Shown: positions 1,592 through 57,021 of the stretch, piece after piece
How the letters are laid out: each line of letters opens with the position of its first letter
Numbering within the stretch: position 1 is the first letter of the stretch
NCBI GenBank assembly: GCA_963920525.1
Contig: OY986439.1
Location: forward strand, 46,226,982-46,290,981
DNA from: Dichetophora obliterata
Lineage: Eukaryota > Arthropoda > Insecta > Diptera > Sciomyzidae
Direction of reading: 5' to 3'
Length of the DNA stretch: 64,000 bases
Position numbers and translations under genes: made by a program
Notes under the pieces: generated by a model
Told to the model about the DNA's origin: nothing
The model's input: only the letters and a program-made list of their open reading frames with translations
Databases searched by the model: none

Positions 1592-1618
1592 CAAGTTCGT
1601 TTCTTAAGTCTTTTGTTT
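1592..1618 (+). repeat. 27-bp dispersed motif, copy 1
   Basis: This is an exact match to the consensus CAAGTTCGTT, any base, CTTAAGTCTTTTGTTT. The flanks are not shared with the other seven copies. See the first finding. Confidence 0.8.
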
Positions 1619-2429
1619 ATGTCTTATGCCTTATTGTATTGCCATCGGTATTTTACATTTCCATATGCTCTTTTAATTTATGTCTGCTAAATAGTTATAA
1701 TTAGTGTACAAACACATGTTATATCATTCTTAGTTTGCCATAAAAATATATTGATGTATTTAGTGCAGATTATTGTAAGGTGTAAAAAATAGAATAAAGT
1801 CGTTGAACTGCTTCTCTAACCATCTAAATTATTTTTATAATTGCAAAATTATTTCCAGTAATACTTTTTATGGTCACAAGTTGTTTTAATTAACACCAAT
1901 CGAGTGAAACTTTCTTCAACAACACATACGTAACAGCCATTTAATGCTGCCAGGTGTGCTTAAAAAGATGTTCGTTTGCACTGATAACTTGCAGATTCAT
2001 TGTAAATGTGGATAAGTCTTATTGTGACTTTCAGTCTTAATGACAAGTCCGAACCTTAATTGCAGTTTATGCACAGTTGTTGGTAATCGTTTATGGGTAA
2101 AAGTTAACGTTTACTAGATGTGATGGGGATAAGCTTTTTTGTGCAGTATTTCTATAGTATTCTACAGTATTTCTATAGTATTCCTATAATTTTAGAAACA
2201 AATAATAATGAAAAATTTTAAGTAACTCTGAGAAAAACTTAAAGTAAGCTTATGTAGTCAATTAAAATAAGTTACGATGGTAAATAAATGTATAATTTTT
2301 TTATGTCAAAGTTGGTGTAAGATATGTAAATACCTTTCTATTATAAGGAAAGTTGGTTACTAACAAGCTTAAATATCCAATTATATTTTGCCAAAAAGTA
2401 TCTACAGAGAACCAAAATGGCTTCAAACA
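1619..2429. other. AT-rich non-coding stretch
   Basis: Nothing recognisable apart from a short local duplication of 'tatttctatagtattc' near 2147-2182. Confidence 0.5.
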
Positions 2430-2905
2430 AATTAGCTCCTCACACCTAAAGCCAACTCAAGATAGGCTGAACTCTCAACATGCAGAACAACAAGGTTTAT
2501 CTGACTGACTTTAGACCCAAAGCGATCGAGAGCAGTTCTCTCGTTGGGAAGACCAGAGGTAGCCATGGTAGTGGCCGTTACCACAAGGCACTGCTTAAAA
2601 GGCAGACATGCCTCCAGACTGGGAGTCATCACAAATGACTTCTACAGAAGCTGCAGGGACGAAGAGGAGGAAAAAACTATCTCCCACCTTCTATGTTCCT
2701 GTCCCGCGCTCTCTAGAAGGCATGAATTTCTGGGGCCAGTCTTCTTTTCTGAGCTTAACGACCTGTCAAAGACAAGCGTCAAACGTATTGTAAGCTTTAT
2801 CAAGAGCTCAATGTGATGGTTATTGGTCTAAGTGAGCCCTGCTACGTGCGTTTTGGTTTAAGCACGTAAAGCGGCTGCAATCTCAACCTAGCCTAATCTA
2901 GCTCC
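2430..2905 (+). pseudogene. 3' fragment of a Jockey/R1/I-type LINE ORF2 (post-RNase H zinc-binding tail)
   Basis: The frame from 2544 to 2816 encodes a 90-residue tail. It carries the pattern of the C-terminus of Jockey-superfamily ORF2 proteins: a TRHCLKGRHASRLG segment, then YRSC, an acidic stretch, TISH and LLCSCPAL. In this family the pattern is a C-x2-C...H-x4-C zinc-binding motif after RNase H; here the first cysteine position is tyrosine. The upstream part (2430-2540) is out of frame. A GC-richer 3' tail follows the stop to about 2905. It is 5'-truncated as dead-on-arrival LINE copies usually are, and its base use differs from the AT-rich surroundings. The exact clade is not resolved. 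Confidence 0.75.
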
Positions 2906-2910
2906 TCGCA

Positions 2911-4543
2911 CAAAAACTAAGTATAAATAATTTTTGCAAGTTCCTCTCTCTTTGGAGATACCAAGTGGCAGGATATTTTTTCCTCCATTAAGTTCAACTT
3001 GACTGAACAAACATTTCCACAAGAAACAAAACTAGGTTTTTTCAAGCAGAATAGTTTTAAATGTAAGACGTTAACACTTAGCAGCTGACTGCTAGAAGCT
3101 AATTTTATATTGCGGCACACCTTAATTAAATACTTTATTAAAAATTCTTTATTCGCCAATTCGGGCAAAAGATCAAAACGTTCACACAACCACATAAAAA
3201 AAATAAAAATCACAAACATACAATAGCAATTAACTTTACTTACTATAAAACATTTTATATTACTCGTTAAGGCAATAGAAATAAAATTTTAAATTAGCGA
3301 AAAAAAACAACTAATTCTTTAATTTAAAAATAATCGTAATCATCAAAAACAATGTGATCAGCATTGAAGAGCAACTTATATCCAGCTGCGAGCCTTTTTC
3401 ATCAAGAATTTGTTTTTCTTCTATTTTTCGCATTAAAAGCATAAGTTTATAAAAAATAATGCTATGGTTAAGAACACGATTTTCAGTACAAGTTCAACGT
3501 AAAAGGTTACGTGAATGGCAACAGTTACAAAGATAATACTCTTTGGTTAAAAAAAAAGCACATACACAAATATAATATAATAAAACCAAGAGCCAAGGTT
3601 CCGATATGATAGACAATGTAGCGATCATCACAACAATCATGATTGATTGCAAATAATGGCAAAATTTATGTTGAGAAGATCTTGTCGTGACATGAGGACG
3701 TTCGGTTATGGTAGGCAATTATTTATTGTGTGCAACTAAGACGGTAATAACGACTAAGAATAACTATAAGTTGACAAATGAATAGCTGCTGGCTGATATG
3801 AGTAGATATGTTTAGAACATTTCGTGTATATATATATATATGTGTGTTTATGTGTTTAGAACTCCATTAAATTTCACAAATAATTTTTGTATCATTTTTT
3901 TGCAGATTGTTTAGATTTATTGCAAGCTTACTTTTTTCCTTTAACTATCAAGCAGCTTTTGATGCCATTAAAGATCATCCTTGATTCGATTAATCGAAAC
4001 ATAACGCTTAGTTTGAAAACTCAACAAAATTAATCACCATAATAAGATTAACCAAGGTTATATCTAAAATTATGCATATAAATATTAAGCTGGTTCTATT
4101 TAACAGTTATCGAAGTCAATACGCAGTAATTGGCGGCATTTTATAAATGTTTGTTTCTAACTAAAAACAAAACAAAAATTATTGAATATCATTACATTGA
4201 TTTTAACTAAAACCTACTCGTTCATAAAAAACGAACATGAATGCTTTTGACTTAAGAGACCTTACCGATCTTTGATCACTCACCAGGCGGATCTTTAATT
4301 AAAGCATTATGTTCCATACACTGTAAAATATTAAAGAAGGTGTACATTAATTTTGAAATATTTGGAGTTTTCTTTTTTTAAATTGAAGGCAGCATTTTTT
4401 CATTAGAATATGCATAATATAAGAGAGTTATATTATATATAATTATTTATGCATATATTAAGGTTACCCTCCATTACAAAAGTTTTATTTTTGTTAATTT
4501 CATAGGCTAAAAGTATTCGATTTGATATAAAACTAAAATCTAT
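2911..4543. other. Non-coding stretch, small TA microsatellite
   Basis: No gene or recognised element. A short (TA)n tract followed by TG-rich sequence sits at about 3829-3856. Short open frames on the minus strand (2917-3219, 3494-3718) show no family resemblance. Confidence 0.5.
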
Positions 4544-4711: not shown

Positions 4712-4968
4712 AAATAAATTGACCAGGTACACCCTAGAAAGGACTTCGATCGAGGTTTCATTGATTAATTGTGTTGTGCGTGTTATTAAATGTTTGAACA
4801 CAAATGATAGAGAACTGGACCTACAAGTTTAATGCCGACTCCGAACGGTTTATGTTCTCAAGAAGCTTTACATGGCAGTTTTTACTCTCAGAGATTTGCA
4901 TTGTCTGCAGAGAGGTGACGACCGAACAGAAAAATTTACTCAATTGAAATAACATTCTGTCTGAGCAG

Positions 4969-5032: not shown

Positions 5033-5054
5033 CGGCCGCCACTTGATCTAAATA

Positions 5055-13861: not shown

Positions 13862-14560
13862 CAAAGTACTGTGCGGCGAGTTTAATGCGAAAGTCGGAAG
13901 GGAAGGCATCTTTGACCGCACTGTCGGTCAGTTCAGTCTTCATGAGACCTCCACGAATAACGGTCTATGACTGATAAACTTCGCCGCGGCACGAAACATG
14001 GTAGTTCGTAGCACCAGATTTAAATACCTCGACATACACAAAACCACCTGGCTGTCCCCGGATCAAAAAACGCGAAACCACATTGATCACGTTGTAATCG
14101 ACGGAATACACGCCTCTAGTGTTATGGATGTGCATACATTTCGGGTGGTCAACATTGACTCCAACCGCTATCTTGTTGCAGCCAAGATCCGCATGCGATT
14201 GTGCAATGCGAAAAAAATACGCACAGGAATGCAACGAAAGTTATATGTCGCTGCAATAACAGCGGACTGCCGAGACCTACTCCGATCAACTCTCGGTTAT
14301 GCTCAAGAAACCAACCCCTGAACCCGACAACACCGACGGACCTTGTGCGCTCAAATCCCACTCCATGCGCACTGCCGCTGAGGAAGTCCTTGATTTCCAG
14401 CGCCCGCAACCTCGGAACCAATGGTACGATCAGGAGTATCGCTTCGTGACAGCAGTAAAAGACGCCGCATACAGAAAAACGCTACAGTCAGCTGTAACGC
14501 GAGCCGTGCGAGAAAATTCAGAAGAACTGGAGGTGTACCAGGGCTAGAAGGATGCACGAA
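13862..14560 (+). pseudogene. LINE endonuclease domain, broken
   Basis: The translated frames show LCGEFNAKVGREG near 13868; the usual catalytic motif is GDFN, so Asp is changed to Glu. Next come HKTTWLSPDQKTRNHIDHVV (14038-14100), then IDGIHASSVMDVHTFRVVN and DSNRYLVAAKIR (14155-14190). In apurinic-like LINE endonucleases the DH/SDH-type residues near the C-terminus complete the active site; here the motif reads DSNRYL. Frame changes occur near 13970 and again after 14300, where a GC-rich linker (NQWYD near 14420, KDAAYRKTLQSAVTRAVREN near 14459-14518) follows. A stop at 14545 (TAG) breaks the linker. The protein is not functional. Confidence 0.75.
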
Positions 14561-14654
14561 AATTTTATCAACAGGTTAAACGTCTAACCCACGGTTTCAA
14601 GCTAGGAGCATCCACTTGTAGAGATGAAAATGGAGATCTGGATACGGATACGCA

Positions 14655-15440
14655 GTGTGGTTGAGATTTTGGAGACAGTACTTCTCCAATCTATTTACTA
14701 GCGACAAACCCATCAATTCCGCCCATGAAGAACACTGTGCAGCACCACCAAACAACGAGTGGCAGCATCACAACCTAGTCAAAAAGAGGTTCGAGCTGGT
14801 ATCCAGCGACTCAAAAACAATAAGACAGCGGGTGCTGACAATAGACCAGATTTTTACACTTCGACAAATCCTGGAAAAAAAAACCCACGAAAACCAAATT
14901 GACACCCATCATCTCTTTGTCGATTATAAAGCTGCGTTCGATAGCCCGAGAAGGGATTGCCTTTACGCAACAATGTCTGAGTTCGGTATACCTGCAAAGT
15001 TGGAAGTTAGTAAGACTTTGCAGTATGACGTTGAGCAACACATACAGCTCCTTCAAGGTAGGAAATTACCTCTCCGAAACCTTTAATACCGAAAAAGGTT
15101 TCAGACAAGGCGATCCGTTATCTTGCGATCTCTTCAACATCATCATGGTGGGGGGGGGGGATCGTACGAAAGGCCGGTGTGTATCGTAATGGCACCATTT
15201 TCTGGAAAGGTATCCAGCTCCCTTGACATTGAGATTGTTCGCAGAACCAAGAGAGGTGTCACCGCTGCTTTCACCGCTATCGAAAAGGAATCAGCCAAAG
15301 TGGGTTTGACGATAAGCGAGGGCAAAACAAAGTATATGCTGTCTACAAGCAGGGGTGCATGGCTTCTAGACTCCCACGTTTCATCCGGCAGCTATAACTT
15401 CTTCGCAGTAGTCAAGAAGCTTATATAACTTGGCACCGCC
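14655..15440 (+). pseudogene. LINE reverse transcriptase domain, internally deleted
   Basis: The frame 14655-15086 contains IDQIFTLRQILEKK followed by HHLFVDYKAAFDSPRRDCLY (first palm aspartate region) and EFGIPAKL. The sequence joins the end of the linker directly to IDQIFTLRQ, so the fingers part of RT is deleted. A second frame continues with FNTEKGFRQGDPLSCDLFNI (15079-15140). It then reaches a G run (15149-15158) and RRTKRGVTAAFTAIEKES (15240-15290), then EGKTKYMLST. The YADD box expected just before the RRTKRG segment is missing. The matching minus-strand copy at 59484-60268 keeps regions lost here. Enzymatic activity is excluded. Confidence 0.75.
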
Positions 15441-15508
15441 GTAAACAATAACAATGATGTCAGTCTGGAGATAAAGCGAAGAGCAACAATTGCTAATAGG
15501 TGCTACTA

Positions 15509-16167
15509 CCCAGCAAAAAATGTGCTTCCAAAAGAAGGTAAAGTGGAAGGGAAAGTCTTGAACTCCATCCCTTCCACTTTCATACGCAGAAGGTATTCTT
15601 TTAACATATGCATGTCATTGGGAGGAATGCTTTTCTTAGTCTTCTCTAGAAGTGCTTCCAGAATTTTTTCAATGAAAGATTTCTTTGAGCCCTTAAATGA
15701 AAGGATTCTAGTAGGTGTTTTAGAGGAGAACTTTAAGTAGGCATTCCATGGAATGAAATGGTTTTTGTGGTTAGGGTGGCTTAAAAAATTCCACGGAGAA
15801 TATCCTTTTTCCCGATTTTCTCGCGATTTTAGTGTTGGATATGAGAAGTGTTTGGGTTTTGTTGGGGGTTTAAAGAAAAATCTACGTAAAATATCCCTTT
15901 TCCCAATTTTCACGGTATATTGGTGTTTGAAGTAGGAAGTGGTTGCGTTTTATTGGAGGTTTGAAAAATCCCTCGGAAAATAAAAAAATGCATCAAAAAA
16001 TAATTGAATTTAAATGCTATTTGAATGTCTTTGAGAAGTGGTTTATGAGAATTATCGAAAGCACTTCTTGATAAGGCTTAGAAGAAGCAAAATTGGATCT
16101 ATAGAATGTCTTCTGGAAGCAGTGTCCCTAAGAATGCATGTCATATCTGTAACAAAATTTTTCTGGG
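15509..16167. mobile_element. TA-flanked inverted-repeat element nested in the LINE
   Basis: The LINE reading is interrupted within codons for a 'CYY' segment and resumes at 16168 with the continuing C-terminal domain. The insert starts CCCAGCAAAAA and ends TTTTTCTGGG, and it is flanked by TA on both sides (15507-15508 and 16168-16169). This fits a Tc1/mariner-superfamily or other TA-target element of 659 bp. The minus strand has a 135-codon open frame (15506-15913) that runs past one end of the insert, so I do not treat it as a gene. The interior contains short related blocks ending in 'atatccctttttccc'. Confidence 0.7.
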
Positions 16168-16340
16168 TATGGGTTCAGTAAGCAACTTAGTTCCAGAGCC
16201 CTCTCTCGATCGACAAAACTAGCACTCTTCAAGACGCTCATTCTGCCTGTGTTTCTTTATAGCGCTGAAGCATTGATAGCTTCGCAAACTGACGCAGCTG
16301 CTCTTGGTTGTTTGAGAGAAAAATCGTCTAGAATCGGTCA
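16168..16340 (+). pseudogene. LINE C-terminal fragment after the nested insertion
   Basis: Frames here give SKQLSSRALSRSTKLALFKT, LILPVFLYSAEALIAS and TDAAALG, the usual C-terminal continuation of this LINE family. The homology fades around 16340. The copy then ends or is truncated. Confidence 0.7.
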
Positions 16341-17300
16341 CACAATATAGTTAGATGGTTTTATTTTTGAATTTGCAATTAATGTTGCTTTTGGAGAGAA
16401 AATTATTTATTAGGCTCTTGCACTTAATAGTAAATTCCTGAAAGATTTTTTGTGTTACCGAAAAACAAGTTGTCATCAGAGTTTAAAATGCAATATCTGA
16501 ATAAGTGCAATTGAGAATTGTATACAGACGTAGAATACCTTGCATTTTATCGTATTAAAGAAATATTTGATAACGTCTTGTGTCCATTTACTTCTAACAG
16601 GATAAATATTTTTTATTTTTACTTCAATGTAAGAAATTAAGAACTGTCGTTGATGAATTAAAAATAAAAGTAAAAAATATTGTTATTGGTTTTTGAAGGC
16701 TTTTTTTACATCCAAATGTCTGTGAGTTTTTTTCTTAAATGCTACAGTTTTTTAAAAAAGAACTTTCTCATGGTTTTTGTAATCTTTGATATTGTGTTTT
16801 CAAAAAAAATGGACGACTCAATTATGCCAAACGTTTGAGCCTTTCGGAAAAGGGTATTCAGATCAAATGCTTTTTACAGTAGATAAGTGTGCGAAATTTT
16901 TGGGAACTAAATTAAGTTTTTTACACTCTTAAGGATGTGTTCATACCAATCCCATTAGCAGATATGAATTTGAACTGCATAATATAGCGTTATACTGGAA
17001 AATTTTTAGGCGTCATCAATTTTTTTCGGCCGCTTTCTTACTTTCTTTATTTCTTTATTTCTTACTTTACTATTTTTGCAAGCAAAAATTCTCGGACTAA
17101 AAATTTTAATTTCTTGAAATTGTAAACATTTTCTTTTTTAAGTATTTTTTTAAAAGTAAACAAAACTTTCGTTTAAATATTTGCACAAAAAACCAAAAAT
17201 ATAAAAATTCAAGTAAATCGGTCATAATATTTCCCATTAAACAATGCGCTATAAATATTTTACGAATATTATGACAAACATTTTAACTTTTAAGGTACAA
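16341..17300. other. Non-coding AT-rich stretch
   Basis: Nothing recognised on either strand. Confidence 0.5.
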
Positions 17301-17304: not shown

Positions 17305-17331
17305 CAAGTTATTATGTTAAGTCTTTTGTTT
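17305..17331 (+). repeat. 27-bp dispersed motif, copy 2
   Basis: CAAGTT and TTAAGTCTTTTGTTT are kept at the standard spacing. Four mismatches fall in the central CGTTnC part. Confidence 0.6.
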
Positions 17332-17344: not shown

Positions 17345-18400
17345 AGGAGTGTGTGTGTGTGTGTATGTATTATGAACAATCACATTAAAGGTAGAAGTTT
17401 TAATTTACTTAATCTGCAATTAAAATGGCTAATTAAAATTTTCCTGCCCATCTTCACACATCATTCGCTTGGATTCCGAGTAACTAGGCCGCATAAAAAA
17501 CATAATACTTCATTGTTAAAATTTTCTCATTGTAAAAAAAAATGAAGAAAGCAATAATAAAACATGAACATAACACGAGACGCACTGGCACAGTGACACA
17601 ATAATGATGATGGGAAAAAATACAAAATGGGAATTAGTGCAATTATTTTTTTGTTTTTTGAGCATGTAAACAATAAAAAACTTGTGGAAGCTTTTTATAT
17701 GCCTAACAACGAAATTGTGTTCAATTTTTTCTAGCACCAGAACCAGGAAGAGATTTCTTTAAGCTGTTACTGTAACTGAAATGTTGAAATTGTAGAAAAA
17801 TGTTTCATAGGATTTAAGATTTTTTGACATGATTTTATGTGTTTATGTTTTTTTCCATTTTTTTTTTTTTTGTAAGCCCTTTTATTTTAATTGAAGGCGC
17901 GATTTCTAATACGCACATTTATTGTATTCCCTGCGAAATTATTTTTTGCACGTTAAAACATGTTCATATCTGCATCACGATGCAAAAAAAAACTACTTCG
18001 ATTGCGCATCTGTGAAGCGAGTGAAGTCGAACGAAGTCAGCGGTAGCGTCAACAACGTGGTTGATGTAATATTGTGCTCGTAGTAAAAGTCCGTTGTTCT
18101 ACGAATTAACTTGCCAAAATTTTCTTTAAAAAGCCAGAGTAACTTTATTTTAATTTTCAAAATGAACTTTTGGCAATAAAAGTATTTTTTCGAAAAAGTT
18201 TTTATAAAAAAAAGCTATGAATAGCATTTATGTTTAGTATAAATGTAAACCAACATTTGTAATAACAATTAGTGTTCTTATTTTATTATTTTCTGACTAT
18301 GTTTCTAAAACCGTTATATATTGGGCCTTATTTAGACATGGTGGTCCTAATATGGCAAAAATCAGACTTTTTTAAAACCTTCTGAGCTGGATATATTTTT
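17345..18400. other. Non-coding stretch, short TG microsatellite
   Basis: A short (GT)n tract lies at 17350-17363. No gene is supported. Confidence 0.5.
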
Positions 18401-18409
18401 TACTTTTTC

Positions 18410-25135: not shown

Positions 25136-25442
25136 GGCTTTGATCTGATGTTAATAAAATCCCAGCAAACATTTTTTGAAGCTTAAAACATAGGTAATAA
25201 AATATTCAAATATATATGACAATTAAAAGCAGATCCAATATCTTTTATCTGCATTATATTTGTGTTCTTAAAAAATATTTTATTTTTTAAATAACTTTTT
25301 GTATAAAATTGTTCAAATATTTCTTAATAGCTGAAATAAATTATTTAATACCCTAAAATTCTCCATTGTAAATTTAAATTAATTTGAATTCATTTATAAT
25401 AAATAACTTTATTTAACTATTATGTTGTGGTTTCGTGGTGAA

Positions 25443-25469
25443 TAACAAAAGACTTAAGAACCAAACTTC
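25443..25469 (-). repeat. 27-bp dispersed motif, copy 3
   Basis: On the minus strand CTTAAGTCTTTTGTT is kept exactly. Four mismatches occur, at positions 1, 7, 9 and 27. Confidence 0.65.
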
Positions 25470-26478: not shown

Positions 26479-26505
26479 AAACAAAAGACTTAAGTAACGA
26501 ACTTG
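26479..26505 (-). repeat. 27-bp dispersed motif, copy 4
   Basis: This is an exact match to the consensus on the minus strand. Confidence 0.8.
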
Positions 26506-30899: not shown

Positions 30900-33800
30900 T
30901 GACCGTGTGCAATGAGTATCGTGACTCTGGTCAGTTGAGCTTTCCTACAAGAAATACTATAGTAACTGACTCAAATGTGGCTATTTCTTACTTGCCAGTG
31001 AGAACCAAATGTGAATTATAGGAAGCCACCGGTGATGGTTATACAAATAAATGCCTGGTCACTTTTTAGTTGTTGCTGGTCTCATTAGTCTCATACGTTT
31101 TGTGTGTTTTATTTGTCTCTGTTGTTGTTGCTTAATAGCTGCATATATTCTTAGCTTATATGAAACACGATTATTTAATATTAAATATGTTTACTTGATT
31201 TTAGATATTTGTATAGTTTAATGTTTTTATTTTAATATACTTTAAGTAAATACAAAATATATTAGAAAAATAGAATGTGGTTTTAAATAATAATATTTTA
31301 ATGTTAATATGTAAATAATAATTTGTAACGTCACGTTACAAAATATTTCCTTAATTTGCTTAATTTTTTTTCAAATAAAAGACTGGGTCTGTTCAAGTTT
31401 TGACTCATTCATTTTTTCAAATCAATTTAAGACTCTGATCCAGAAAACCAATATCAATAAAGTCAGTATCTTCGTCAGTATCGAAATTTAAAATAATCTT
31501 CTACTCAAAATAAAAAATCATATTTTTTAATTATATATTTATTTTTTTATTACTTTAAATATATTATATAAAATCATGTAATAAAATTATTTTACATATT
31601 ATAAAAAATAATACAAAATATAATATGATATCAAATAAATATTTAATTTAAATTTTGTGACACCCTATGTTGTATTAGAAGTAATGCAAAATATTGCAAA
31701 ACCCATAAAAATATATGCAAAAATATTAAAAAATAACATGATAGAGCTAATTGATTACCTTGGCACAATTGATCTTAGGAACTCAAGTTCGTTGCTGAAG
31801 TCTTTTGTTTATTTGCTTAAATGTGCATAAAATGTCACAATTTGAATCGCATAGAAGGCAAGTGTTTGCAACAAAATAGCCAATTAAGATTGATGTTGAA
31901 CATTTAAGGGAAATCAAATTGATTTAGTATGAATAAAATAATTTAATGGCAAAAAATAATATAATAACCAGGAAGTCGCACGCACACTTTATAATCACAA
32001 TTATTCCCACAACAAACGGAGCTGCAGAAACATTGTAAATATTGAAGAAAAAAAAAACATCAAACTTAAAGTAATGACAACAACTTAATCGCAACTGATC
32101 GATTTCTCCAAGGTTTGCTGCTGCTTCTGTCAACTCAGTTATTTTCTTTGCTGAACTAGTAAGCAAAGCAAAGAGAAGCAAACTGCTGCATCCTCTATGA
32201 GTAAATCAGGAAATACTTGGGTAACGCACTTAACAACAACATAATAACTAGTAGTATAAGAAATCAATAGCTAAAGAAAAATTTAAAAAAAACCAAGCTT
32301 AACAAGTGGAAAACTATTAAACAAAGTTACAACAGCTGCAAAGCAAAAACAGTAAGAAATATAAAATTAGCTGTTGTCAATAAGCTGATGATGTAGAAAG
32401 TTAGCAAATCTTACTTGTTGCAATGTTGCATCTTTTTGCTGCTTTGTTGTTAAGCGGATTATGTTATAGCAACTAGAAAAAACAAATTTAAAGAAATAAT
32501 ATAAAAATTATGGCACAATAGCTTAACCAAGTCATTATATTGCAACTGAACTTGATCAATTATTTTTGAATTACTTGCTGGAAATGAAAAACTTTCACTA
32601 TATTTCAAATCAAATAAAGTAATAAAGACTACAGATTGAGGAATTTAAATGATTATTAAAATTAGTATATCTCCGAAAGTTTATCTAAACTTCAAAATTT
32701 TGCATCAAAAAACGTTAAATTATTTCTTAACTCTTCATTTCGTCATATCACGAAGCGCATTAAAAAGTTTAAAAATACCACTAGGAACCAGCCGACCCAC
32801 ACATACTAGCACTTTTCAATAAAAAACAAAACATTTTAAAGCACTTATGTATTTATTGCACCCAACAACGCTTTTTGTATTGGTTAACATTAAAGCTTCT
32901 TGCCTAAACTGTCGTCTGCTTGCTTACAATTTCCCATACAGAGGAGCAACGAACTCTTCATTCATCCATTGCTTAAACCGATGAGGCAGCAGCAATAATT
33001 TTATAAGAAAATCTCACCCTATCACGTTTTTCCACGACTCATCAGCAAAAAAAAAACAACAAATACAAAATACAAATACCGACAAAAAATGTCAAACAGC
33101 TGATGAAATGGCACAGTGAGTAAGACAATACTACTACTTGGAATTGTGAACATAAATTTAGCAAAACAGCAACAACAAATAAACAAGAACAACAATAAAA
33201 AAATAAAGCTATGATGACATTTTACGTTTATTTAAGTATCTGTTAAATTTGAAGGCAAATTGATGTGCTTCTTTATTACTAAAGTGGTCTATTAAATATT
33301 GACTTTTGTCTAATATTTGACTAAATTCTTTTTATAGAAAAAAAAAATTTCAAAAATTAAACGAATTAAGATTAATATGGTTTTAAGATGCTTTTTATGG
33401 CTATGAAATTTGCAACACTTATTGATAAATTGTTGGTATTTATTTGCTTGTACAGTTTTTTCTCTATCCTTTAACGCTCTGTTCAAGTCAATTTCGTTGT
33501 TTGGCTAAAAATGTTGTATATCTTTAAAGATCATGTGAGCTTAATGTTTTACTTTAATTGGTTTGTTAAAAAAAAAACTAAGTTGACTTTTAATTGATTC
33601 ATTTATAGCGGCAAACTTTGTGAAAATAACCATGTTGCTAAAATGTACATTTTTGGACTTGAGAGAGTCCAATTCACGTTTACAGACAAAAATTTAATTT
33701 ATCATTGTTTAATTTAATTTAACAATTTTTAATTTTCTCTAAATTTCGAAAATTCGATTAACGAATTCTAATGGCTTAAATACAAATATATTATGCGTGT

Positions 33801-36769: not shown

Positions 36770-39280
36770 ATTAAAAAAGTCCATATCGTCCTTACAAAAG
36801 CGTTTTTATGCCTTTGAAGAGTACACAGAAATTTGGTGCAGGAGAAAAAAGAGAAGCTAAATGATGAAATTTTAAACAGCTTTGCTTAAGATTCGCGCCA
36901 ATGAATACTAATTTTTGCGTTCGTTACATCGCGTTGAATTCAAAAAAATTTCGAATTTAATTTTATATTTCTCTCAAGTCAATATTTATAAAATTTAATT
37001 TTATTTATCAGCTACATGAAACAACAATTGGCCAGCCCCCTCGCCCCTGAGTAAAATCGTTACTACACCCATGTGTATGCAAGCACAACAATAACAAAAA
37101 CTTATTCTGTTGAACTCTAATTCTTTTTTACTAACACATAAGTTAATTGTTAAATTCAGAATACACTTAAAACTTCTAGTTTGACGTAAACGTTTAAACC
37201 GTTGATATATGTACCTATACATTTTTTCTCCTCTTAACTGAGTTTTCTTGCTTCGCTTGCCTTTTATCTACAAATGATTTGGTTTTAATCTTTATTTAAA
37301 TTCAATTTCAATTACTGACTTATGAAGTAATAAAAGTTATGTAATCAAAATTTGTTTTGTTTTTTCTCTAATAGTATCATAAAAAATCGTGCTGGAATGA
37401 TATTTTCAAGTATTTGAAATTGAAAGTATTTTAACTGTTGATATGCTGCTGTCTTAAAATGCTTCAAGTGCGTACGTTGCTATTTTTCACACTCAAATAT
37501 GAATGCTTTTTGCGTGTCTAAAGAAATATTATGCATTTTTATGCGGAAAACTATAAACAACACAGCAGTTATAAGGTGAAAATTCAGGTCAAGAGATGGT
37601 TTTACTATTTTTACTCCATCTGTTTATGATAGCCAGGCATCAATTCAATTATATTGTTTCACTAACACTGAAAAACTAAATGAATCAGAAGAACAAAAGA
37701 AAAAAATACTGTAAATTTCTATATGAAACTTCAGCTGCAGTTTGTCGAACTATGACGCTGCATAATGTTGCGTTTTTGCTTAGCCAGGCGGTTGAAATTT
37801 TTTTGGTTTCTTTTTAATACTTTTTCTAAAAAAGCGCTAAAAATATAGACACTAGTACTAAGCGATTATACTAATATAACGAAAAAGTAGAAGAGAAGAA
37901 GCGACTTATAGCTAACAACAATTTTTGTTGCAGAGGTTTTGTTCAAATAACTTTTGAGGCGTAACAACAACGTAATGGTTTTTAATTCAATTCCTGCTTG
38001 GATAACGCTGTTCGGTGGTGGTACGCTTGGGAAAATTTTTGCAGTTACATCACAGTTGCTTTTTTATGCAGTTTGTAAATTGCTTCATTTACGAATTTCA
38101 GTTAAAATGTAAATTTATTTTAAGCGCAAAAGTGTCATCAACTACTTTTTAATTAAAAGAAAATTAAATGTTGTGTAAAAAAATCAATTAACTTTTGCTT
38201 TATTTAGTCGTTTGACTATTTAATTAATAATCATCATGGCTTTTTGTATATTTAAAAAGCTTGATTACTTCATGAGCACGCGAAAACAAAAGACTTAAGA
38301 AACGAACTTTTCTTCTTGCTCATAATTTCGAAAAGCAAAACTTCAGTATTTTAGTTAAACGATCGACACGAATTGCAGCGACAGCAACATGTGGCAAGTA
38401 TGCAGTAGCAATAACAACAACAAAACAAAAGCAACAACAACAGCAGCGACAATAATGTCACAATAATCTTTTTCAATTCTACTCAAAAATTGGTCACAGT
38501 CATAGCAACAAATAGCTTAAGCCTAAATAACAACAATTTAAGCAACAACTACAACAACACTTCACAAGAAAAATTGCAACAACGTTGCATATAAATGACT
38601 TATACACATAGAGATATGCACACAATGCTTACTTGACGCTAATGCAATTTTTCATATTTGAAGAGCCCACAATGTCAAATAATTTATTCACTGAATTAGC
38701 AACAACAACAGATTTGAAATCGCTACCTTGAATTAATTCTAGTTTCTGGTGGTTTCTTGCCAGTGACTGTTGTGTTTTGTTTTTGATGTGGCATTTTCGA
38801 AGGGTGCATTAAGAGTTTACTTTACTTTCAGTTGGCAATTCAAGTTTTCAGTTTTTTTTTTAAAATGTATATAATAACAACAAAAGCTTCGATCATAATC
38901 AGTAAGCTTAAAGTCGTATTTCAACTTTATTTAGGTAGCAAAATACCCGTTAACAGAAAAAAGTTAAACCAAATCCCTTCAACAGTTGTCATATTTAAGA
39001 CTTGCGTGACACTTTTTGACACTAACTACCTGAACAAAAAAAAAGTCCTAACAAAATCACAATCACAATCAAAACTTTGCTGTGTCAGCACGTGACTTAT
39101 GAGTCACGATAGAGTAGCTATGCAAAGCCAAAATAGTGGGCTTATATTCTCCAAGTTTTTCTATAAAATATTTTTTCAACGAGCTGCAAGTATTTGTTTC
39201 AGAATTTTTCAATATATCAACTATTGTAAATGCAATTATTCTCTGCTACAAAAGTACAAAAATATACCCTATACTTTAAT
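36770..39280. other. Host-like non-coding sequence with motif copy 6
   Basis: No gene is recognised. Interrupted CAA/CAG repeats lie at about 38407-38455. The 27-bp motif is at 38284. Confidence 0.4.
38284..38310 (-). repeat. 27-bp dispersed motif, copy 6
   Basis: One mismatch to the consensus, at position 1, read on the minus strand. Confidence 0.75.
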
Positions 39281-42070: not shown

Positions 42071-42216
42071 GAATTCTAGTATTTTTATTGTTAAAACGTA
42101 TACCAAGGCGCTTCATGCCATATTTGTAAAGATATATACCTTAGTATGCAAATTGTATACAATAATACGAACTATTAAGTCACGCAGCATAGTCGGGTCT
42201 TGCCGAAGTCAGTCAC

Positions 42217-42420
42217 ACCGAACATCACCGAACATCACCGAACATCACCGAACTTCAGCGAACACCGAACATCACCGAACTTCAGCGAACACCGAACATC
42301 ACCGAACAGCACCGAACCTCAGCGAACACCGAACATCACCGAACATCACCGAACTTCAGCGAACACCGAACATCACCGAACATCACCGAACTTCGCCGAA
42401 TACCGAATATCATCGAACCA
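42217..42420 (+). repeat. CACCGAACATCA minisatellite inside the LTR
   Basis: There are more than fifteen short units of ACCGAACATC or GCGAACTTCA type. Open frames over it give repetitive HRTSPN-like products and are not genes. Confidence 0.85.
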
Positions 42421-42635
42421 GCGTCGGCAGACTCACCCACAACTGTATATTTATCATATTTCTAAAATATTGTGTATTGTAAGAAAGACTTGATTTAACA
42501 ATAAAATAGAAAATATCTTCTGAGCACGAAAATCACCAAGTCTACTTATTTATTTTGGACAAAAGTTTGAGGGTCTTTTGTTTGACCCTGGAACCGCTGA
42601 GCATACCTCAGCCTGTGAACAAAACCCCCTTACAA

Positions 42636-43511
42636 ATGGCGCCCGAGCAGGGACCTGCTTCCAAAGACGGCAGTGGAAACGAAGACGAAGCAGGTGCAAT
42701 ACACAATAAAAATAATAATATGGACAAACATTTAACATCGGACTCACTCGGCTGGATATATTTACTTAAAAAGGAGCGGCTCATTAATGAGTGCCGCAAG
42801 ATCGGGTTACCGATTGATGGCTGCACTGTAGAGGATTTACGAAGGCAATTAAGCCACTTCGTCAAAACCAAACGAAGTAGAGCATCAACCGAAAATATAT
42901 TTCGAGCCCTGGAAGCCGAAGTTGAAGCAGAAGAAAAAGTGCCCATCTGCAACGACACAGCCACAATAACAACCGGAAGCGACAACACCCATATGCAGTC
43001 AACAACACTTTTGGTACCTGAGTACCAACGAGTTAGTCACCACCAGAGTTCGGACACCGAAGTAATGAATACAGTACGTCGATGGAACATCCACTACGAG
43101 GGTGGCGAAAACCTGTTTGAATTCATCGAGCGAATTGAGGAGCTAGCCGAATGCTACCACTTGGACCGCGATAAATTGTTACCCACATTACTGGAGATAC
43201 TACAGGGTAGGGCTCTACAGTGGTATCGTGTTAAACGACCAACAATCACCACATGGGCCACGTTTCGTGCAGAAGCCGAAAGGTTTTTTCTGCCGAAGCG
43301 ATTCTTGAGTCACCTGGAAGAAGCGATTTATCATCGTAAACAGATGCAAAGGGAAAAGGCAAAAGACTACATATTATGTATGCAAACCCTCATACGCCAA
43401 CATCCTCGGCTTAAAATGCTAGACCACACGGATCGGATTTATGACGGGCTACGAGTAGAATACAAGCTCTACGCCAGACGAAGTGATTTTAGTACGCTCG
43501 ACGAGGTGTAA
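42636..43511 (+). pseudogene. gag: Gag of the gypsy-type element, C-terminally broken
   Basis: The frame is open from 42555, but sequence before 42636 belongs to the LTR. The first plausible start is the ATG at 42636 that overlaps the primer site; the alternative is 42720. Residues about 147-270 carry the Ty3/gypsy capsid-like Gag fold pattern: RRWNIHYEGGENLFEFIERI, KLLPTLLEILQGRALQWYR, TWATFRAEAERFF and REKAKDYILCMQTLIRQHP. The frame stops at 43511 right after STLDEV, and the zinc-knuckle sequence resumes in another frame without its first cysteine pair. A deletion or frameshift has therefore joined Gag to the knuckle region. Gag would assemble the virus-like particle in the cytoplasm; this copy is defective. 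Confidence 0.75.
42637..42654 (+). promoter_or_regulatory. Primer-binding site, Lys-tRNA type
   Basis: TGGCGCCCGAGCAGGGAC lies two bases after the LTR end. It is complementary to the 3' end expected of a lysine tRNA (TGGCGCCCGA core). It supports the 5' LTR boundary and plus-strand orientation. Confidence 0.8.
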
Positions 43512-44745
43512 AAAACGGGGTCACCGGCGCTATGATTGCCGAAGTCGAGCACGAAAATTTTGCTCACGATGCGGGCAAGACGATACCTTATCCCGCGATT
43601 GTCACTGTTTTAACCCACTCTCGTCCACCCCCGGCCCCTCAGAAAGTACAACCGACGGCCGTTACTATATCACTGTGAAGGTCAAGGGTCGATCCATAAA
43701 AGCTTTGATTGACACCGGATCTACATTATCATATGTCGACGATGGCATCAAACAGTTCCTGATCAAACAAAATATTCAACCCCGACCACAAAACAGGAGA
43801 ATCCAGCTAGCAGAGAATTCGACAGTCGATTGCGAGGACACATACCCCATCTACGTGGACTATGGACAGAAGCCAGTGTTTATCTTAGTCTCCCCGTTAT
43901 CATCGCTAGCAGAGCCAATGATCTTAGGCATGGATTTCTTGCGTCGTAGAGGCATAAAACTAACGATGGATGGACGAGAGTTAAGCCCGAAGATCAACGA
44001 CCAAACGGCGAAGATTTCAACTCTACACTCGATCGTCAGACGGGAAAACTTAACACCCGAACAAAACCAACACCTGGCCGATTTTTTGGACAAGCAAAAC
44101 TTACGATTCGCTACTATCACAGGAACATGCAACATCACCGAACATTCAATTATACTTCGGCATAATCAACCGATTAAGCAGCGGTACTACCCCCGCAACC
44201 CGGCTATGCAGAGTATATTGAATCAAGAAATCGATGAGCTACTCGCGATGGATCGCATCGAAGCGTCAAAAAGCCCATATAGCTCCCCTGTCGTTTTAGT
44301 TCGGAAAAAGCAAGGTTCGTGGCGAATGTGCATAGACTATCGCCAGTTGAATGCGGCAACCGAGCCCGATGCTTACCCGCTGCCCCAGATCAACGCAATT
44401 CTAGACCAACTCAAAGAGGCAAAATATATCTCCTCAATAGACTTGAAAAATGGATATTGGCAAATCCCAGTGGAGCAGAAATCACGAGCATGCACCGCGT
44501 TCACCGTCCCGGGCCGAGGCCTTTTCCAGTGGAGAGTCATGCCCTTTGGCTTACATTCGGCGCCCGCCACATTCCAGCGCGCACTCGACAGCATCATCGG
44601 ACCCGAACTCCACCCGAAGGTATTTGCGTACCTCGATGATATCATCATCCTAGGCACATCATTTGACGACCACATGGAAAACTTGAAGTTCGACTTTAAT
44701 TTAACCCACTTTGTACCAGACTACATAAATGTGTTAATATCTTAA
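43483..44745 (+). pseudogene. pol: Pol of the gypsy-type element: zinc knuckle, protease, truncated reverse transcriptase
   Basis: This 420-codon frame contains, in order, a zinc-knuckle remnant (CKKRGHRRYDC, then CSRCGQDDTLSRDC at about 27-40), an aspartic protease with LIDTGS (75-80) and ILGMDFL, and an RT. The RT has SPYSSPVVLVRKKQGSWRMC, DYRQLNAATEPDAYPLP, SSIDLKNGYWQIPVEQK (first catalytic Asp), MPFGLHSAPATFQRALD and the YLDD box (383-386). Homology ends at about 44692, where unrelated sequence adds about 18 codons before a stop. The RT thumb, RNase H, integrase and any env are absent. It overlaps the Gag frame by about 30 bases. The sequence is GC-richer than its surroundings and has no internal stop before the truncation, so the copy is fairly young. 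Confidence 0.85.
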
Positions 44746-53350: not shown

Positions 53351-53649
53351 TAGGCCAATTATTGCCTATTTTTAAAAGGTGGTAACACATGGAAAACGAA
53401 TTCAACTTGGCAAGAAATTAATCTACCCAAACAAGTCAGGGGGTCAGCTTGAGTAGATTGGTGAATGGGAAGATTACAAAAACAATATGCACGGCATTTG
53501 CCAATCTATCCAACTACCCAAGTCAGTGTGAATACCCCCATGTTTATCAGTGTGAAGGTCGTTTGCTTGCCTCGCTATTTAAAATAAAAAGTTTTTTAAT
53601 GTCTACACCATTTCCAATTGTAATTAAGAAATATCTTGCGAAATTTAGG

Positions 53650-54475
53650 AAAAAATTTAATTGAAGTTTAGAATAGATTAGTTGAATTTCAGAAATTTTG
53701 TTTTAAATTTAGAAAGAATCAATTGAAATTCAGAAAAGACCAATTTAAATTCAGAAAATGATACATTAACATTTAGAAAAGATCAATTGAAGTTTGCAAC
53801 TTCATTTGAAATTCGGAATATGTCAGTTCAAATTCGGAAATTCTATTTTAAATTTAGAAAAGATTAATTAAAATTCAAATATTCCATTTGAAATTAAGAG
53901 CAGATCAATTTATATTTAGAAAAGGCAAATTCAAATTTAGAAAAGATCAATTCAATTTCAGAATAGATCAATTTAAATTCCGAAATTCCATTTTAAATTT
54001 AGAAAATATCAATTGAAATTCAAAAATTGCATTTAAAAATTCAGAGTAGATTAGTTGAAATTGAGAAGTTTATAAAAGCTCATTCGGAATTGAGAAATGA
54101 TCAATCGACATGATTTCGATTTGGAATTCGGAATATGTCAGTTCAAATTCAGAAATTCTATTTTAAATTTTAAAAAATAAATCAATTTAAATTCAGTAAA
54201 AAATAAACTTAAACTCATTCGAGATCAATTAAATTTCATAATACTTCCATTAAAATTTAAAACAGGTCAATTGGAATTCAGAAAAGACCAGTTGAAATTC
54301 GGATGAAATCAATTGAAATTCAGAATAAATAAATTAAAATTCGGAAAAGATAACTTGAAATTCAGAAAATATCAATTGAAATTTAGATAAGAACAATCTT
54401 TATTCAGAATCCTATTTCAAATTCAAAATAGACTAATAGAAAATCAGAAAAAAACAATTAAAGTTCAGAAAAGGG
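53650..54475. repeat. Degenerate minisatellite of about 23 bp
   Basis: AGAAAAGATCAATTGAAATTC-like units recur over about 800 bp with many substitutions. Examples are GAAAAGACCAATTTAAATTC, GAAAAGATCAATTGAAGTT and GAAAAGATAACTTGAAATTC. No coding meaning. Confidence 0.8.
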
Positions 54476-54788
54476 GTCAGGGTCTTGCTGTAAATTTCCG
54501 TAGATTTTTGTTAGAGTGTAGGCAGGGGTCAAAATTGTACCTACATGTCTCACTTCCTGTAGTTAAGTTCGTTTTAGCCAAAGACGCATGATAGGGGGGT
54601 GCTTATTAAAAAATAAAACACCATTTTTTTCAAAGGTCTATTGTAGGTACATAATTAAAAAAATTATAATGCCCATACCTGTACCTTCCGCAAAAAACTT
54701 CATTGACATAAGACCATGTTTATGTATTGTATTATTACTATAATAATGATTATGATGAAAATTTTCAAAAAATTCATTATAAATTTAG

Positions 54789-56102
54789 CAGGGACCAAAA
54801 ATAACAGTTATTTCCGAAATTTCTATTCAAAAAGTCAAATGGAAAGAGTAAGTCTATTCGATATTTGAATATAAAAATGTGATGCTTGTTAGCTAAGGAA
54901 TAATAATCTTTAATGATTTAAATTTTTCTGATTTTTTTTAAAAAAGTCAATAAATAATCATTATTTTTTGACCAATTTTATTTCGATCAAAAATTAAAAT
55001 GATAAAATTATTTGACTTTTATTTTTTTGATCAAAAATATAAGTTAAAATTTTACTTTTATTTTTCGGTCCAAAATATAAGTTAAAATTTTACTTTTATT
55101 TTTTCGATCAATATAACTGTACTTTTATTTTTTCGATCAAAAGTAAAAGTCATATTTCAATTCTTGTATCATCTGCTTGTACCCACTGTCTCAGTCGTTT
55201 GCGAAATGAATGAAAACACAAAGTGCAATGATAAGCAAATAGGCGATGTCATTTAAACGATGTGCAACGATATGAAGATCGATAGTAAGGTTTTTTTTTT
55301 CTTTGCAAAAATGTTACGAACATTTGTAAAAGAATAATTATTATTAAATTATATGATAAATTTAATTATATACATAAATATAATTAATTAATAATTAATT
55401 TTAACTCATATTTTTGACCAAAAAAAATAAAAGTCAAATTTTAACTTTTATATTTGATCAAAAAATAAAAGTCAAATTTTAACTTTTATTTTTTTGATCA
55501 AAAATATAAGATAAAATTAATTATTAATTAATTATAATTTTGTATATAATTAAATTTATCACATTATTTAATAATTATCGAAATAAATTGGTCAAAAAAT
55601 AACGATTATTAATAGACTTTTTTAAAAAAATCAGAAAAATTGAAATCATTAAAGATTATTATTCCTTAGCTAATAAGCATCACATTGCTATATTCAAATT
55701 AATTAATAATTAATAAAATAATAATTAAATTAAATTTTTATTGGTAAGGATAAAAAAAATTAATTCTTATTTCAATAGAACAGTCATTAAGCAGAATATT
55801 GATTTTTTTATATCGAAAAAATATAAGTAAAATATTAACTTTTATTATTGTTCGAAAAAATTAAAGTAAAATTTTAAAAGTTATATATGATCGAAAAAAC
55901 AAAAGTCAAATTTTAACTTTTATTTTCTATCAAAAAAATAAAAGTAAAATTTTAACTAATATTTTGGACCGAAAAAATAAAAGTCAAGTTTTAACTTTTA
56001 TTTTTGATCAAAAAAAATTATTTTTGATCAAAATAAAATCGGTCAAAAAATAACGATTATTTATTGACTTTATGGAAAAAATCATAACTGTTACGGTCCC
56101 TG
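54789..56102. mobile_element. hAT-type non-autonomous element, palindrome-rich
   Basis: The ends are inverted: left CAGGGACCAAAAATAACAGT; right (minus strand) CAGGGACCGTAACAGTTATG. The 8-bp flanks AAATTTAG (54781-54788) and GAATTTAG (56103-56110) match at seven positions. Ends starting CAGGG and an 8-bp duplication are hallmarks of hAT. Inside, a roughly 110-bp arm at 54878-54995 is repeated inverted at 55566-55692 (TTAGCTAAGGAATAATAATC shared). The core consists of repeated TTTTTGATCAAAAA palindromes separated by ATAAAAGTCAAATTTTAACT words. No transposase. Confidence 0.8.
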
Positions 56103-56941
56103 GAATTTAGCTATTCAACTTTTTATAGCAACAATTTTGATCACATCGAAGTTTGTAATAAAAAACATCCAAAATATGGACAAAATTTTTCAATATCTAT
56201 ACCAAAATCATTCGTGGTGTCCGAATGTCAAATTGCAGCAAGTCAACAGAGTTTGATACAATTGCCAGTAGGTCAGACTATAATTTGTCTACAACAAACA
56301 GTTGTAAAACAAATTAAACGCCAGTTAACAAAATCGACACACATCACATTCACTTCTTGTGCTCAATCATGTGTTTGATCTCACAGTTTCTAAAACGTGT
56401 AGAGTCCAAGAAACTTCAATTTCGATCAGTTTACTCTCAAGCTTCATGGGGGTTATTTTAGTGTATCGATAGCAAAATCAAGTGCAGAAGCAGAGTAACT
56501 GCCGGCTGGAGGCAACAAATGAATAATTTCGCTCCTGTGTTTTCTGATATTTTTTTCTAAATTGTTTCCCGCGGTCATGCTTAACAACATGGCCAAGTGG
56601 CCGCTAAAGGAAAACTCGCTCGCTCCACACAGTTGTCAGTGACTGAAACAATTTGATTACCTGTTTGCGACTAAACTGAAAGTGGCATTAAAGACGCATG
56701 CAAATAAATAATACATAAAAAATTTAAAAAAAAGTACTAAAAAATCTGTGCATTTGGCATTGCGCAAACGCTTAGCATTCATTGTTTTATGGTTTTCGAT
56801 ATATGAACATAGCTGTAATTATATTCGAGTCAACTTGAACTGCAGCAACATTCAAATAGTGCTTTTTAATGAATTAAGCGATATTTTGACGGCTACTCGG
56901 TTAATCAATTCAAAGGAACAGAACTGATGGTGTTACGGTTT

Positions 56942-56968
56942 CAAGTTTGTCGCTTAAGTCTTTCGTTT
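56942..56968 (+). repeat. 27-bp dispersed motif, copy 7
   Basis: Three mismatches to the consensus, at positions 7, 10 and 23. Confidence 0.7.
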
Positions 56969-56994
56969 TATATTTACTAAATAAGTTTATTTCA

Positions 56995-57021
56995 ACTGTT
57001 CGTTGCTTTAGTCTTTTGTTT
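56995..57021 (+). repeat. 27-bp dispersed motif, copy 8
   Basis: Four mismatches (positions 1-3 and 15). It lies 53 bases after copy 7 in the same orientation, the only close pair. Confidence 0.65.

What the first reader, a model, noticed from the sequence alone, without database searches (positions are those of the whole stretch)
1592..57021. A 27-bp motif repeated eight times with fixed spacing across the host sequence
The consensus is CAAGTTCGTT, one free base, CTTAAGTCTTTTGTTT. Copies start at 1592(+), 17305(+), 25443(-), 26479(-), 31784(+), 38284(-), 56942(+) and 56995(+), with 0, 4, 4, 0, 1, 1, 3 and 4 mismatches over 26 defined positions. No copy has an insertion or deletion, and the bases on either side are not shared. 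None lies in an element I could assign to a transposon. Transposon debris would carry shared flanks and indels. The pattern instead suggests selection on a long protein-binding site, as for multi-zinc-finger architectural proteins, or a composite enhancer site. Inference: it may mark one regulatory or topological domain. I do not recognise it.
Basis: seen in the sequence. Interest (0 to 1): 0.88.

Follow-up and report, generated by a model that had tools for sequence, protein, structure and literature searches.

The report
Clustered 30-bp regulatory motif in flies
An unusually long, rigid DNA word of about 30 letters is repeated well over a thousand times in this fly's genome, in tight groups near certain genes and without any jumping gene around it, which makes it a likely landing site for one unidentified gene-controlling protein.

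Summary
All eight copies are there with the stated strands and mismatches; shuffled sequence gives none. The host is an unnamed fly (1.31 Gb; window = contig C6:46,226,982-46,290,981). Genome-wide there are 1,357 copies with up to 3 mismatches, against 1 for the reversed motif. Copies share no flanks beyond 2-3 edge bases. With a spacer of 0-20 allowed, all 100 listed of 194 have exactly one base, never C. Degeneracy is position-specific, with coupled positions. Copies form homotypic pairs about 50 bp apart and, on the arm mapped, groups of 2-12 over 2-850 kb, sparse in C1:60-170 Mb where the same left 12-mer in other contexts is common. Repeat coverage is roughly halved within 600 bp. Four copies sit in and just upstream of one gene's coding intron (the cuticle lectin schlaff); others lie beside a wingless-type and a Serrate-type exon. 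This fits a recognition site for one long-footprint, probably multi-zinc-finger, protein acting in cis-regulatory domains. It does not fit a transposon. I know of no described motif that matches, and four searches for printed pieces found none. The protein, orthologous sites and function are untested.

The parts
1592..1618 (+). motif copy, 0 mismatches (spacer T)
   Evidence: genome place C6:46228573; a dispersed repeat ends ~60 bp upstream
17305..17331 (+). motif copy, 4 mismatches, right half 15 of 16
25443..25469 (-). motif copy, 4 mismatches, right half 15 of 16
26479..26505 (-). motif copy, 0 mismatches (spacer A)
   Evidence: genome place C6:46253460
31784..31810 (+). motif copy, 1 mismatch (spacer G)
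38284..38310 (-). motif copy, 1 mismatch (spacer T)
56942..56968 (+). motif copy, 3 mismatches; first of a tandem pair with 53 bp start-to-start
   Evidence: similar pair spacing elsewhere
56995..57021 (+). motif copy, 4 mismatches; second of the tandem pair

Best explanation
The 27-bp motif, really about 30 bp (consensus A-D-CAAGTTYGTTDCTTAAGTCTTTTGTTT-T, D = not C), is the DNA recognition site of a single sequence-specific protein with a very long footprint, most likely a protein with eight to ten tandem C2H2 zinc fingers. Shown: the site exists at more than a thousand places in this genome without shared flanks, is rigid, has position-specific degeneracy, and is grouped in pairs and in gene-region clusters. 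Inferred: that a protein binds it, that the protein is of the zinc-finger type, and that several sites in one regulatory region (introns and upstream DNA of one gene or a few neighbours) recruit it together to activate or silence those genes. Weaker inference: the gene set leans towards epidermal, cuticle and signalling genes (schlaff, cuticle-protein genes, a wingless-type and a Serrate-type gene) rather than neuronal receptor genes.
For: Number: 1,357 copies with up to 3 mismatches (682 + 675) against 1 for the reversed motif in 1.31 Gb. Specificity: the right 16-mer alone (first base of the 27-mer set to not-G) occurs 759 times against 16 for the reversed control; in the 100 listed the left half is never random (position 4 G100, 5 T99, 6 T97; lowest score 5.4 bits by a matrix made from the same 100). 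The left 12-mer is not itself special (563 against 756 reversed), but its first 100 occurrences split cleanly into 35 with the motif's right half (up to 3 of 16 mismatches) and 65 others (one at 5, the rest at 8 or more). Rigidity: with a spacer of 0-20 allowed there are 194 matches against 0 reversed; 100 of the 100 listed have spacer 1 and none has C there. Protein-like degeneracy: pos 1 C82, 2 A74/G21, 7 C52/T47, 8 G86, 10 T68/G17/C10, 11 T49/G47; positions 7-10 and 10-11 are coupled (0 of 500 shuffles each, 55 position pairs examined). The right half is nearly invariant except position 23 (T26/C7/A2 of 35). No shared flanks: of 1,294 alignments over the central motif among 56 loci, 1,206 are under 40 bp and 10 are 50 bp or more (76-90% identity); the two longest, 93 and 83 bp, join two loci that each hold a motif pair. 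Clusters: adjacent exact copies within 100 kb, 16 against 0.8 expected, the largest of 2,000 randomisations being 5; on C1, gaps up to 20 kb, 28 against 0.9. Internal control: C1:60-170 Mb (range chosen after looking) holds 1 of 35 motif copies but 35 of 65 non-motif occurrences of the same left 12-mer, and 7 of 100 right-half copies. Pairs: 17 of 56 exact-centred 3-kb loci hold further copies with up to 6 mismatches, the reversed motif none up to 6; 8 of 13 pairs at 28-150 bp lie at 45-72 bp (p 0.003, range chosen after looking; 7 of 12, p 0.008, without one 7-mismatch partner); a genome scan allowing 37-67 bp gives 14 matches against 3 reversed, 10 of them motif pairs at 45-62 bp (one is shared with the 13). 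Neighbours are on the same strand in 36 of 74 cases. Repeat coverage is 0.122 within 600 bp and 0.218 at 900-1,500 bp (Wilcoxon 3e-5, n=56). Gene context: four copies, on both strands, in and just upstream of the 27-kb coding intron of schlaff.
Against: No binding protein was identified, no binding or expression data were available, and no related species could be searched, so conservation at orthologous sites is untested. The near-exactness of 100-odd copies is more than a binding site strictly needs. Gene association rests on few cases: cuticle genes 4 of 60 loci within 100 kb against 0.78 expected (p 0.005; three families times three distances tried). Two of the largest epidermal clusters have no exact copy (Osiris genes C1:288.5-290.05 Mb; the large cuticle-protein cluster C4:176.8-177.3 Mb), and one copy lies beside an MCM8 exon, which fits no such theme. 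The null for gene association uses circular shifts and does not model gene density. The non-motif left-half control is rich in repeat-family copies, which may favour gene-poor DNA for their own reasons. Listings stop at 100 places, so the spacer, base and C1 results rest on the first 100 of 194, 759 and 563.
Confidence: 0.7

Rival explanations
1. An architectural (insulator-type) site: a long zinc-finger protein of the Su(Hw)/CTCF/Pita class binds it and organises loops or borders, so that clusters mark topological domains.
For: Long rigid motif, more than a thousand copies genome-wide, clustered in domains. Printed precedent for a fly zinc-finger architectural protein with 'highly specific long motifs' (PMC11229372, three passages and the start of the abstract seen).
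Against: Sites occur in homotypic groups inside a single gene (schlaff) and in pairs ~50 bp apart, not as isolated border or housekeeping-promoter sites. The consensus differs from the Su(Hw), CTCF and Pita sites as I recall them; no motif library was at hand.
Confidence: 0.17
2. Relic or still active part of a mobile element: the 27-30 bp are the end or a short internal piece of a repeat family that spread.
For: High copy number and near-exact copies. One apparent ~700-bp tandem duplication (L004) carries two copies with the same variant. A repeat family shares the first 12 bp with the motif.
Against: Flanks are not shared among 56 exact-centred loci; the few alignments of 50 bp or more are explained by motif pairs or by weak 77-90% extensions of 50-65 bp. 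DNA next to the motif is poorer in repeats than DNA 1 kb away. Copies are sparse in C1:60-170 Mb whereas non-motif left-half matches are not. No indels in the eight window copies; degeneracy is position-specific. The repeat family sharing 12 bp has an unrelated right half.
Confidence: 0.06
3. A promoter or processing signal for many small RNA genes (as in snRNA-type or nematode piRNA-type loci), one transcript per copy.
For: Many short fixed signals in clusters recall nematode 21U-RNA loci (recalled, not tested).
Against: No strongly conserved column beyond 2-3 bp on either side within the 14 upstream and 13 downstream columns printed for 64 aligned copies, only a slight G+C excess at columns 33-35, so no fixed start or terminator nearby. 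No Rfam match in the window. Homotypic pairs ~50 bp apart are unexpected for transcription starts.
Confidence: 0.04
4. A chromosome-pairing, replication or meiotic site rather than a gene-regulatory one.
For: Domain-wise clustering and strand indifference.
Against: Copies are on all five large contigs (C1, C2, C3, C4, C6) rather than on one chromosome, and groups differ widely in number; nothing here links them to replication or meiosis.
Confidence: 0.05

Closest known systems
RE1/NRSE, the 21-bp site of vertebrate REST/NRSF
   Same: Long bipartite site made of two half sites, read by one multi-zinc-finger protein, more than a thousand genomic copies near a class of genes (half sites and spacing from passages of PMC9903721; the rest recalled).
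   Different: Sequence unrelated (from recall). REST half sites are 2 bp apart and also work at 8-9 bp (PMC9903721); here only a 1-base spacer is seen (100 of the 100 listed). Homotypic clustering and ~50-bp pairs are marked here. No binder known, and the sites avoid rhodopsin-like receptor genes (0 of 60 loci within 500 kb, 3.2 expected).
Drosophila zinc-finger architectural proteins with long motifs (Su(Hw), CTCF, Pita, Mzfp1)
   Same: Long, highly specific motifs in regulatory DNA (Mzfp1: PMC11229372, passages seen; others recalled).
   Different: Those sites mark promoters or borders, usually singly (recalled; for Mzfp1 the title and a section heading of PMC11229372 say housekeeping promoters); this site is grouped inside genes. 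Their consensus sequences, as I recall them, do not match.
Subterminal binding-site arrays of transposons and solo terminal repeats
   Same: Short exact repeats at high copy number.
   Different: No element body and no shared flank.

Membership tests
Recognition site of a long multi-zinc-finger protein | fixed length and register, no indels | tested here: met
   spacer 1 in 100 of 100 listed of 194; no indel in the eight window copies
Recognition site of a long multi-zinc-finger protein | position-specific degeneracy independent of flanks | tested here: met
Recognition site of a long multi-zinc-finger protein | a protein that binds it | not testable with these tools
   no binding data, no candidate protein assigned
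Transposon end or repeat family | homology extending beyond the motif between copies | tested here: not met
Insulator/architectural site (CP190-type) | location at domain borders or housekeeping promoters | not testable with these tools
   no Hi-C or ChIP data; a homotypic group within schlaff speaks against it as the main use
Homotypic enhancer/silencer site cluster | several copies within one gene's regulatory region, either strand | tested here: met
   schlaff: C2:200298497(+), 200312803(-), 200324834(+, one mismatch), 200325832(+); pairs. Regulatory activity itself not tested
RE1 (REST) site | REST half-site sequences at 2-bp (or 8-9 bp) spacing | tested here: not met
   spacing is 1 bp in all 100 listed; the sequence comparison with RE1 is from recall
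Regulator of cuticle/epidermal genes | enrichment of sites near such genes | tested here: inconclusive
   4 of 60 loci within 100 kb of PF00379 genes vs 0.78 expected, p 0.005; GPCR 0 of 60 vs 0.98; homeobox 2 of 60 vs 1.27; Osiris and the largest cuticle cluster have no exact copy

The most novel reading that the evidence does not exclude
The site is the genomic signature of a fly 'master' regulator not described before: one long-footprint zinc-finger protein that reads a ~30-bp rigid word, binds in pairs about 50 bp (five helical turns) apart, and gathers at tens of gene domains to switch epidermal/cuticle and signalling genes as a set, an insect counterpart in logic, not in sequence, of vertebrate REST. 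The word-to-domain grouping would make its target domains readable directly from sequence.
Probability: 0.2. Interest if true: 0.82.

Novelty: new member of a known kind. Interest (0 to 1): 0.64.

Why it matters
Few invertebrate regulatory sites that I know of are so long and so specific that most functional copies could be found by plain sequence search. If bound by one protein, this site gives a near-complete, testable list of its target domains in one step, and a case for studying why some binding words carry far more information than recognition needs and how they multiply without transposition.

Tried and rejected
Transposon or satellite origin: rejected by flank comparison. Protein-coding repeat: the reverse complement reads as an open peptide, but two of the most variable positions (7 and 10) are first codon positions in that frame, while third positions 5, 14, 17 and 20 are fixed or nearly so. 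Structured RNA: no Rfam match in the window at gathering threshold. Viral or bacterial origin: 0 exact matches in viral contigs; one 20-position match in a bacterial MAG, about what I reckon chance gives in 257 Gb. Homeobox-gene association: weak (2 of 60 within 100 kb, expected 1.27; 7 of 60 within 500 kb, expected 3.7, p 0.07). Generic cuticle-gene marker: weakened by the Osiris and large cuticle clusters without exact copies. Zona-pellucida genes: only 4 exons found, one 29 kb from an exact copy (C4:186.57 Mb) and one ~165 kb from a seven-copy group (C2:233.07 Mb); too few to test. Shared spacer base between neighbours, as a sign of local duplication: 20 of 34 pairs, 15.9 expected, p 0.11. 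Co-occurring short words near copies: modest homeodomain-like ATTAA enrichment (167 against 117), uncorrected, not pursued. TFIIIC B-box resemblance of GTTCGTTNC: noted from recall, one key base differs, not tested. Printed motif strings: searches (20 of 31 papers listed) returned only papers that I judged unrelated from titles and abstract starts. Topic searches (no paper; 10 of 186 listed; 3 papers) named no such motif in what was shown; the library lacks most subscription journals. Rows dropped before counts: the family tests used exact copies and genes on C1-C4 only (94 of at least 104 exact copies) and, for cuticle and GPCR genes, lists thinned within dense clusters, and the lengths of C4 (and of C2 and C3) were approximate. 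The last genome search slot (CBM_14, PF01607) did not complete.
Full report
WHAT WAS CHECKED. The window is 64 kb of a eukaryotic genome: G000:C6:46,226,982-46,290,981, 1,312,693,994 bases in 76 contigs. It is a fly. The gene just left of the window (L038:1196-2125) has named relatives only in Diptera among the 120 rows listed, the best being Teleopsis dalmanni at 39%, and a schlaff-type lectin exon is 97% identical to a Teleopsis protein. The species itself is not named. Nine of the longer reading frames of the window were scanned: five are retrotransposon parts, one gave a weak match below its cut-off, three gave nothing. I recognised no host exon in the window.

THE OBSERVATION. All eight copies are present as listed. 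At up to 3 mismatches there are five, none being expected from shuffled sequence. Information per column is high from positions 1 to 27; outside, three upstream columns stand out in the eight copies, of which the two within the printed range are flat in 64 exact copies. Comparison of 600 bp on each side of every copy with the window finds nothing shared between copies except the motif (alignments of at most 35 bp), besides a few ordinary repeats.

GENOME-WIDE NUMBER. With up to 3 mismatches the genome has 682 + 675 copies; the pattern read backwards has 0 + 1. At least 104 are exact: the first 100 listed reach C6:56.7 Mb, and four more of the spacer-T class lie beyond. The average is about one per Mb, so 64 kb should hold 0.07; this window holds five. 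In 283 kb of fetched loci, mostly around exact copies, copies of 4, 5 and 6 mismatches also exceed the reversed control (3, 3, 3 against 0, 0, 0), so the true total is above 1,357, perhaps near 2,000 (inference).

WHAT THE SITE LOOKS LIKE. The right half CTTAAGTCTTTTGTTT occurs 759 times against 16 for its reverse (first base of the 27-mer set to not-G). In the first 100 the left half is C82, A74/G21, A85, G100, T99, T97, C52/T47, G86, T89, T68/G17/C10, then T49/G47 at position 11; none scores below 5.4 bits by the matrix made from these same 100. Positions 7-10 and 10-11 are coupled (0 of 500 shuffles each; 55 position pairs examined). The left 12-mer occurs 563 times and its reverse 756 times, so by itself it is not enriched; but its first 100 occurrences split into 35 whose right half is the motif's (up to 3 of 16 mismatches) and 65 others (one at 5 mismatches, the rest at 8 or more). 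The right half of those 35 is nearly invariant apart from position 23 (T26, C7, A2). Allowing a spacer of 0-20 bases gives 194 matches against 0 reversed, and all 100 listed have a spacer of exactly one base, never C; C at the spacer occurs in 1 of 100 right-half matches. From 64 exact copies the site extends by A at the second base upstream (44 of 64), not-C at the first (C in 3 of 64), and T directly downstream (36 of 64). The site is one rigid unit of about 30 bp.

NOT A MOBILE ELEMENT. Among 56 exact-centred 3-kb loci, 1,206 of 1,294 alignments over the central motif are shorter than 40 bp. Ten are 50 bp or longer at 76-90% identity; the two longest (93 and 83 bp) align loci that each hold a motif pair. 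Seven of eight window copies have no repeat-like flank; the copy at 1592 lies about 60 bp from a dispersed repeat. Coverage by sequence that recurs in the other fetched loci or the window is 0.122 within 600 bp and 0.218 at 900-1,500 bp (difference 0.095, 95% interval 0.055-0.136, Wilcoxon p 3e-5, n = 56). One locus (L004) appears to have two copies multiplied by a ~700-bp tandem duplication; this is the only case I noticed.

GROUPING. For 94 exact copies on C1-C4, neighbours within 100 kb number 16 against 0.8 expected, and within 500 kb 32 against 4.2 (2,000 randomisations, maxima 5 and 12). On C1 up to 214 Mb, the 100 right-half matches fall into 26 groups at 500-kb linkage, 8 of them single copies; the largest have 12 copies in 226 kb (12.61-12.84 Mb) and 12 in 764 kb (177.1-177.8 Mb), the latter followed by groups of 8 and 2, 22 copies over 3 Mb in all; another has 4 in 38 kb. 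Gaps up to 20 kb number 28 against 0.9 expected. Neighbours use the same strand 36 of 74 times. An internal control is the 65 other occurrences of the same left 12-mer: 35 of 65 lie in C1:60-170 Mb, but only 1 of 35 motif copies (Fisher p 6e-8) and 7 of the 100 right-half copies. The range was chosen after looking, and many of those controls belong to a repeat family, so the control is not neutral. At short range, 17 of 56 loci hold a second copy with up to 6 mismatches; of 13 pairs 28-150 bp apart, 8 are at 45-72 bp (p 0.003, range chosen after looking), or 7 of 12 (p 0.008) without one partner of 7 mismatches. A separate scan for tandem cores 37-67 bp apart gave 14 matches (reversed 3). In 10 of them the second core has the motif's left half, at 45, 47, 48, 48, 51, 53, 53, 55, 58 and 62 bp (read by eye; one is also among the 13). 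The window's own pair is 53 bp apart. The 10 kb on either side of the window hold no copy with up to 7 mismatches.

GENES BESIDE IT. The clearest case is schlaff, a putative C-type lectin of the fly epidermal barrier (PMC6440989, listing and abstract start seen). The exon with the start codon (ATG at C2:200,298,862) and the next coding exon (from C2:200,326,168) are separated by a 27-kb intron; relatives named schlaff or slf are 77% and 72% identical. One exact copy lies about 340 bp before the start codon (+), probably in an intron of the leader since that exon begins at a splice acceptor. Three lie in the 27-kb intron: one mid-intron (-), and two at 1.3 kb (+, one mismatch) and 309 bp (+) before the next exon. 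Other exact copies lie within about 1 kb of a Wnt exon that I read as wingless (Pfam wnt), a Delta/Jagged-type EGF exon that I read as Serrate, an MCM8 exon, and a short secreted-looking glycine-rich frame. Positional tests on 60 motif loci: cuticle-protein genes (PF00379) within 100 kb of 4, expected 0.78, p 0.005; rhodopsin-like receptors (PF00001) of 0, expected 0.98, and within 500 kb of 0, expected 3.2 (p 0.04 for so few); homeobox genes of 2, expected 1.27. Against a general cuticle role, the Osiris cluster and the largest cuticle-protein cluster contain no exact copy.

MECHANISM. The properties together (rigid 30-bp unit, position-specific degeneracy, no flanks, either strand, homotypic grouping around genes, fewer repeats nearby) are those of a binding site read by one protein along its whole length. 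Tandem C2H2 fingers read about three bases each, so eight to ten would cover it (established knowledge, not tested). The grouping inside and just ahead of a single gene points to enhancer or silencer use. Whether the protein activates, represses or organises chromatin is unknown.

COMPARISON. In logic it resembles the RE1 site of REST. That site is 21 bp, two half sites 2 bp apart, and also acts at 8-9 bp (PMC9903721, passages seen), whereas here only 1 bp is seen. Fly architectural zinc-finger proteins also have long motifs (PMC11229372, three passages seen). I recalled no described motif of this sequence, and four searches for printed pieces of it found only papers that looked unrelated. No motif database and no related genome could be searched.

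Noticed in passing
C1, for example 4863667/4865462, 13363307/13366273, 26671350/26674575: A repeat family whose copies often come as opposite-facing pairs 1.7-3.3 kb apart reads CAAGTTCGTTGCATCRRTYAAAATCAA and so shares 12 bp with the motif, with an unrelated right half. Coincidence or an old link is undecided.
   Followed up: partly
window 25284-25366 and 25537-25624: Two 83-88-bp stretches, 72% alike in direct orientation, lie on either side of the motif copy at 25443; the region is A+T-rich and this may be chance or an old local duplication.
   Followed up: no
window 21648-22469: Foldback-like element: 174-bp inverted arms (91%) enclosing about five 65-bp tandem units.
   Followed up: no
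window 18386-20901, 42510-44745, 13971-16347, 59910-60352, 63077-63572: Broken retrotransposons: a LINE endonuclease/RT, an LTR-type gag-protease-RT, and RT fragments; the 13971-16347 and 63077-63572 pieces were judged by eye and by a shared 82-bp match.
   Followed up: partly
window 42216-42418: Array of about 20 units of a 10-bp word (CACCGAACAT) shortly ahead of the gag frame of the LTR-type element.
   Followed up: no
window 53640-54473: Long AT-rich array with a 21-bp period.
   Followed up: no
window 61837-62722: 300-bp block repeated after 586 bp at 94% identity.
   Followed up: no
G000 contig C5: No exact motif copy in a listing that runs past it, and no homeobox, cuticle-protein or GPCR row listed on this contig; perhaps a gene-poor or sex-limited chromosome.
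   Followed up: no
L038:1196-2125 (C6:46218177-46219106): Unnamed protein conserved across Diptera about 8 kb left of the window; nearest host gene to this motif cluster that I recognised.
   Followed up: partly
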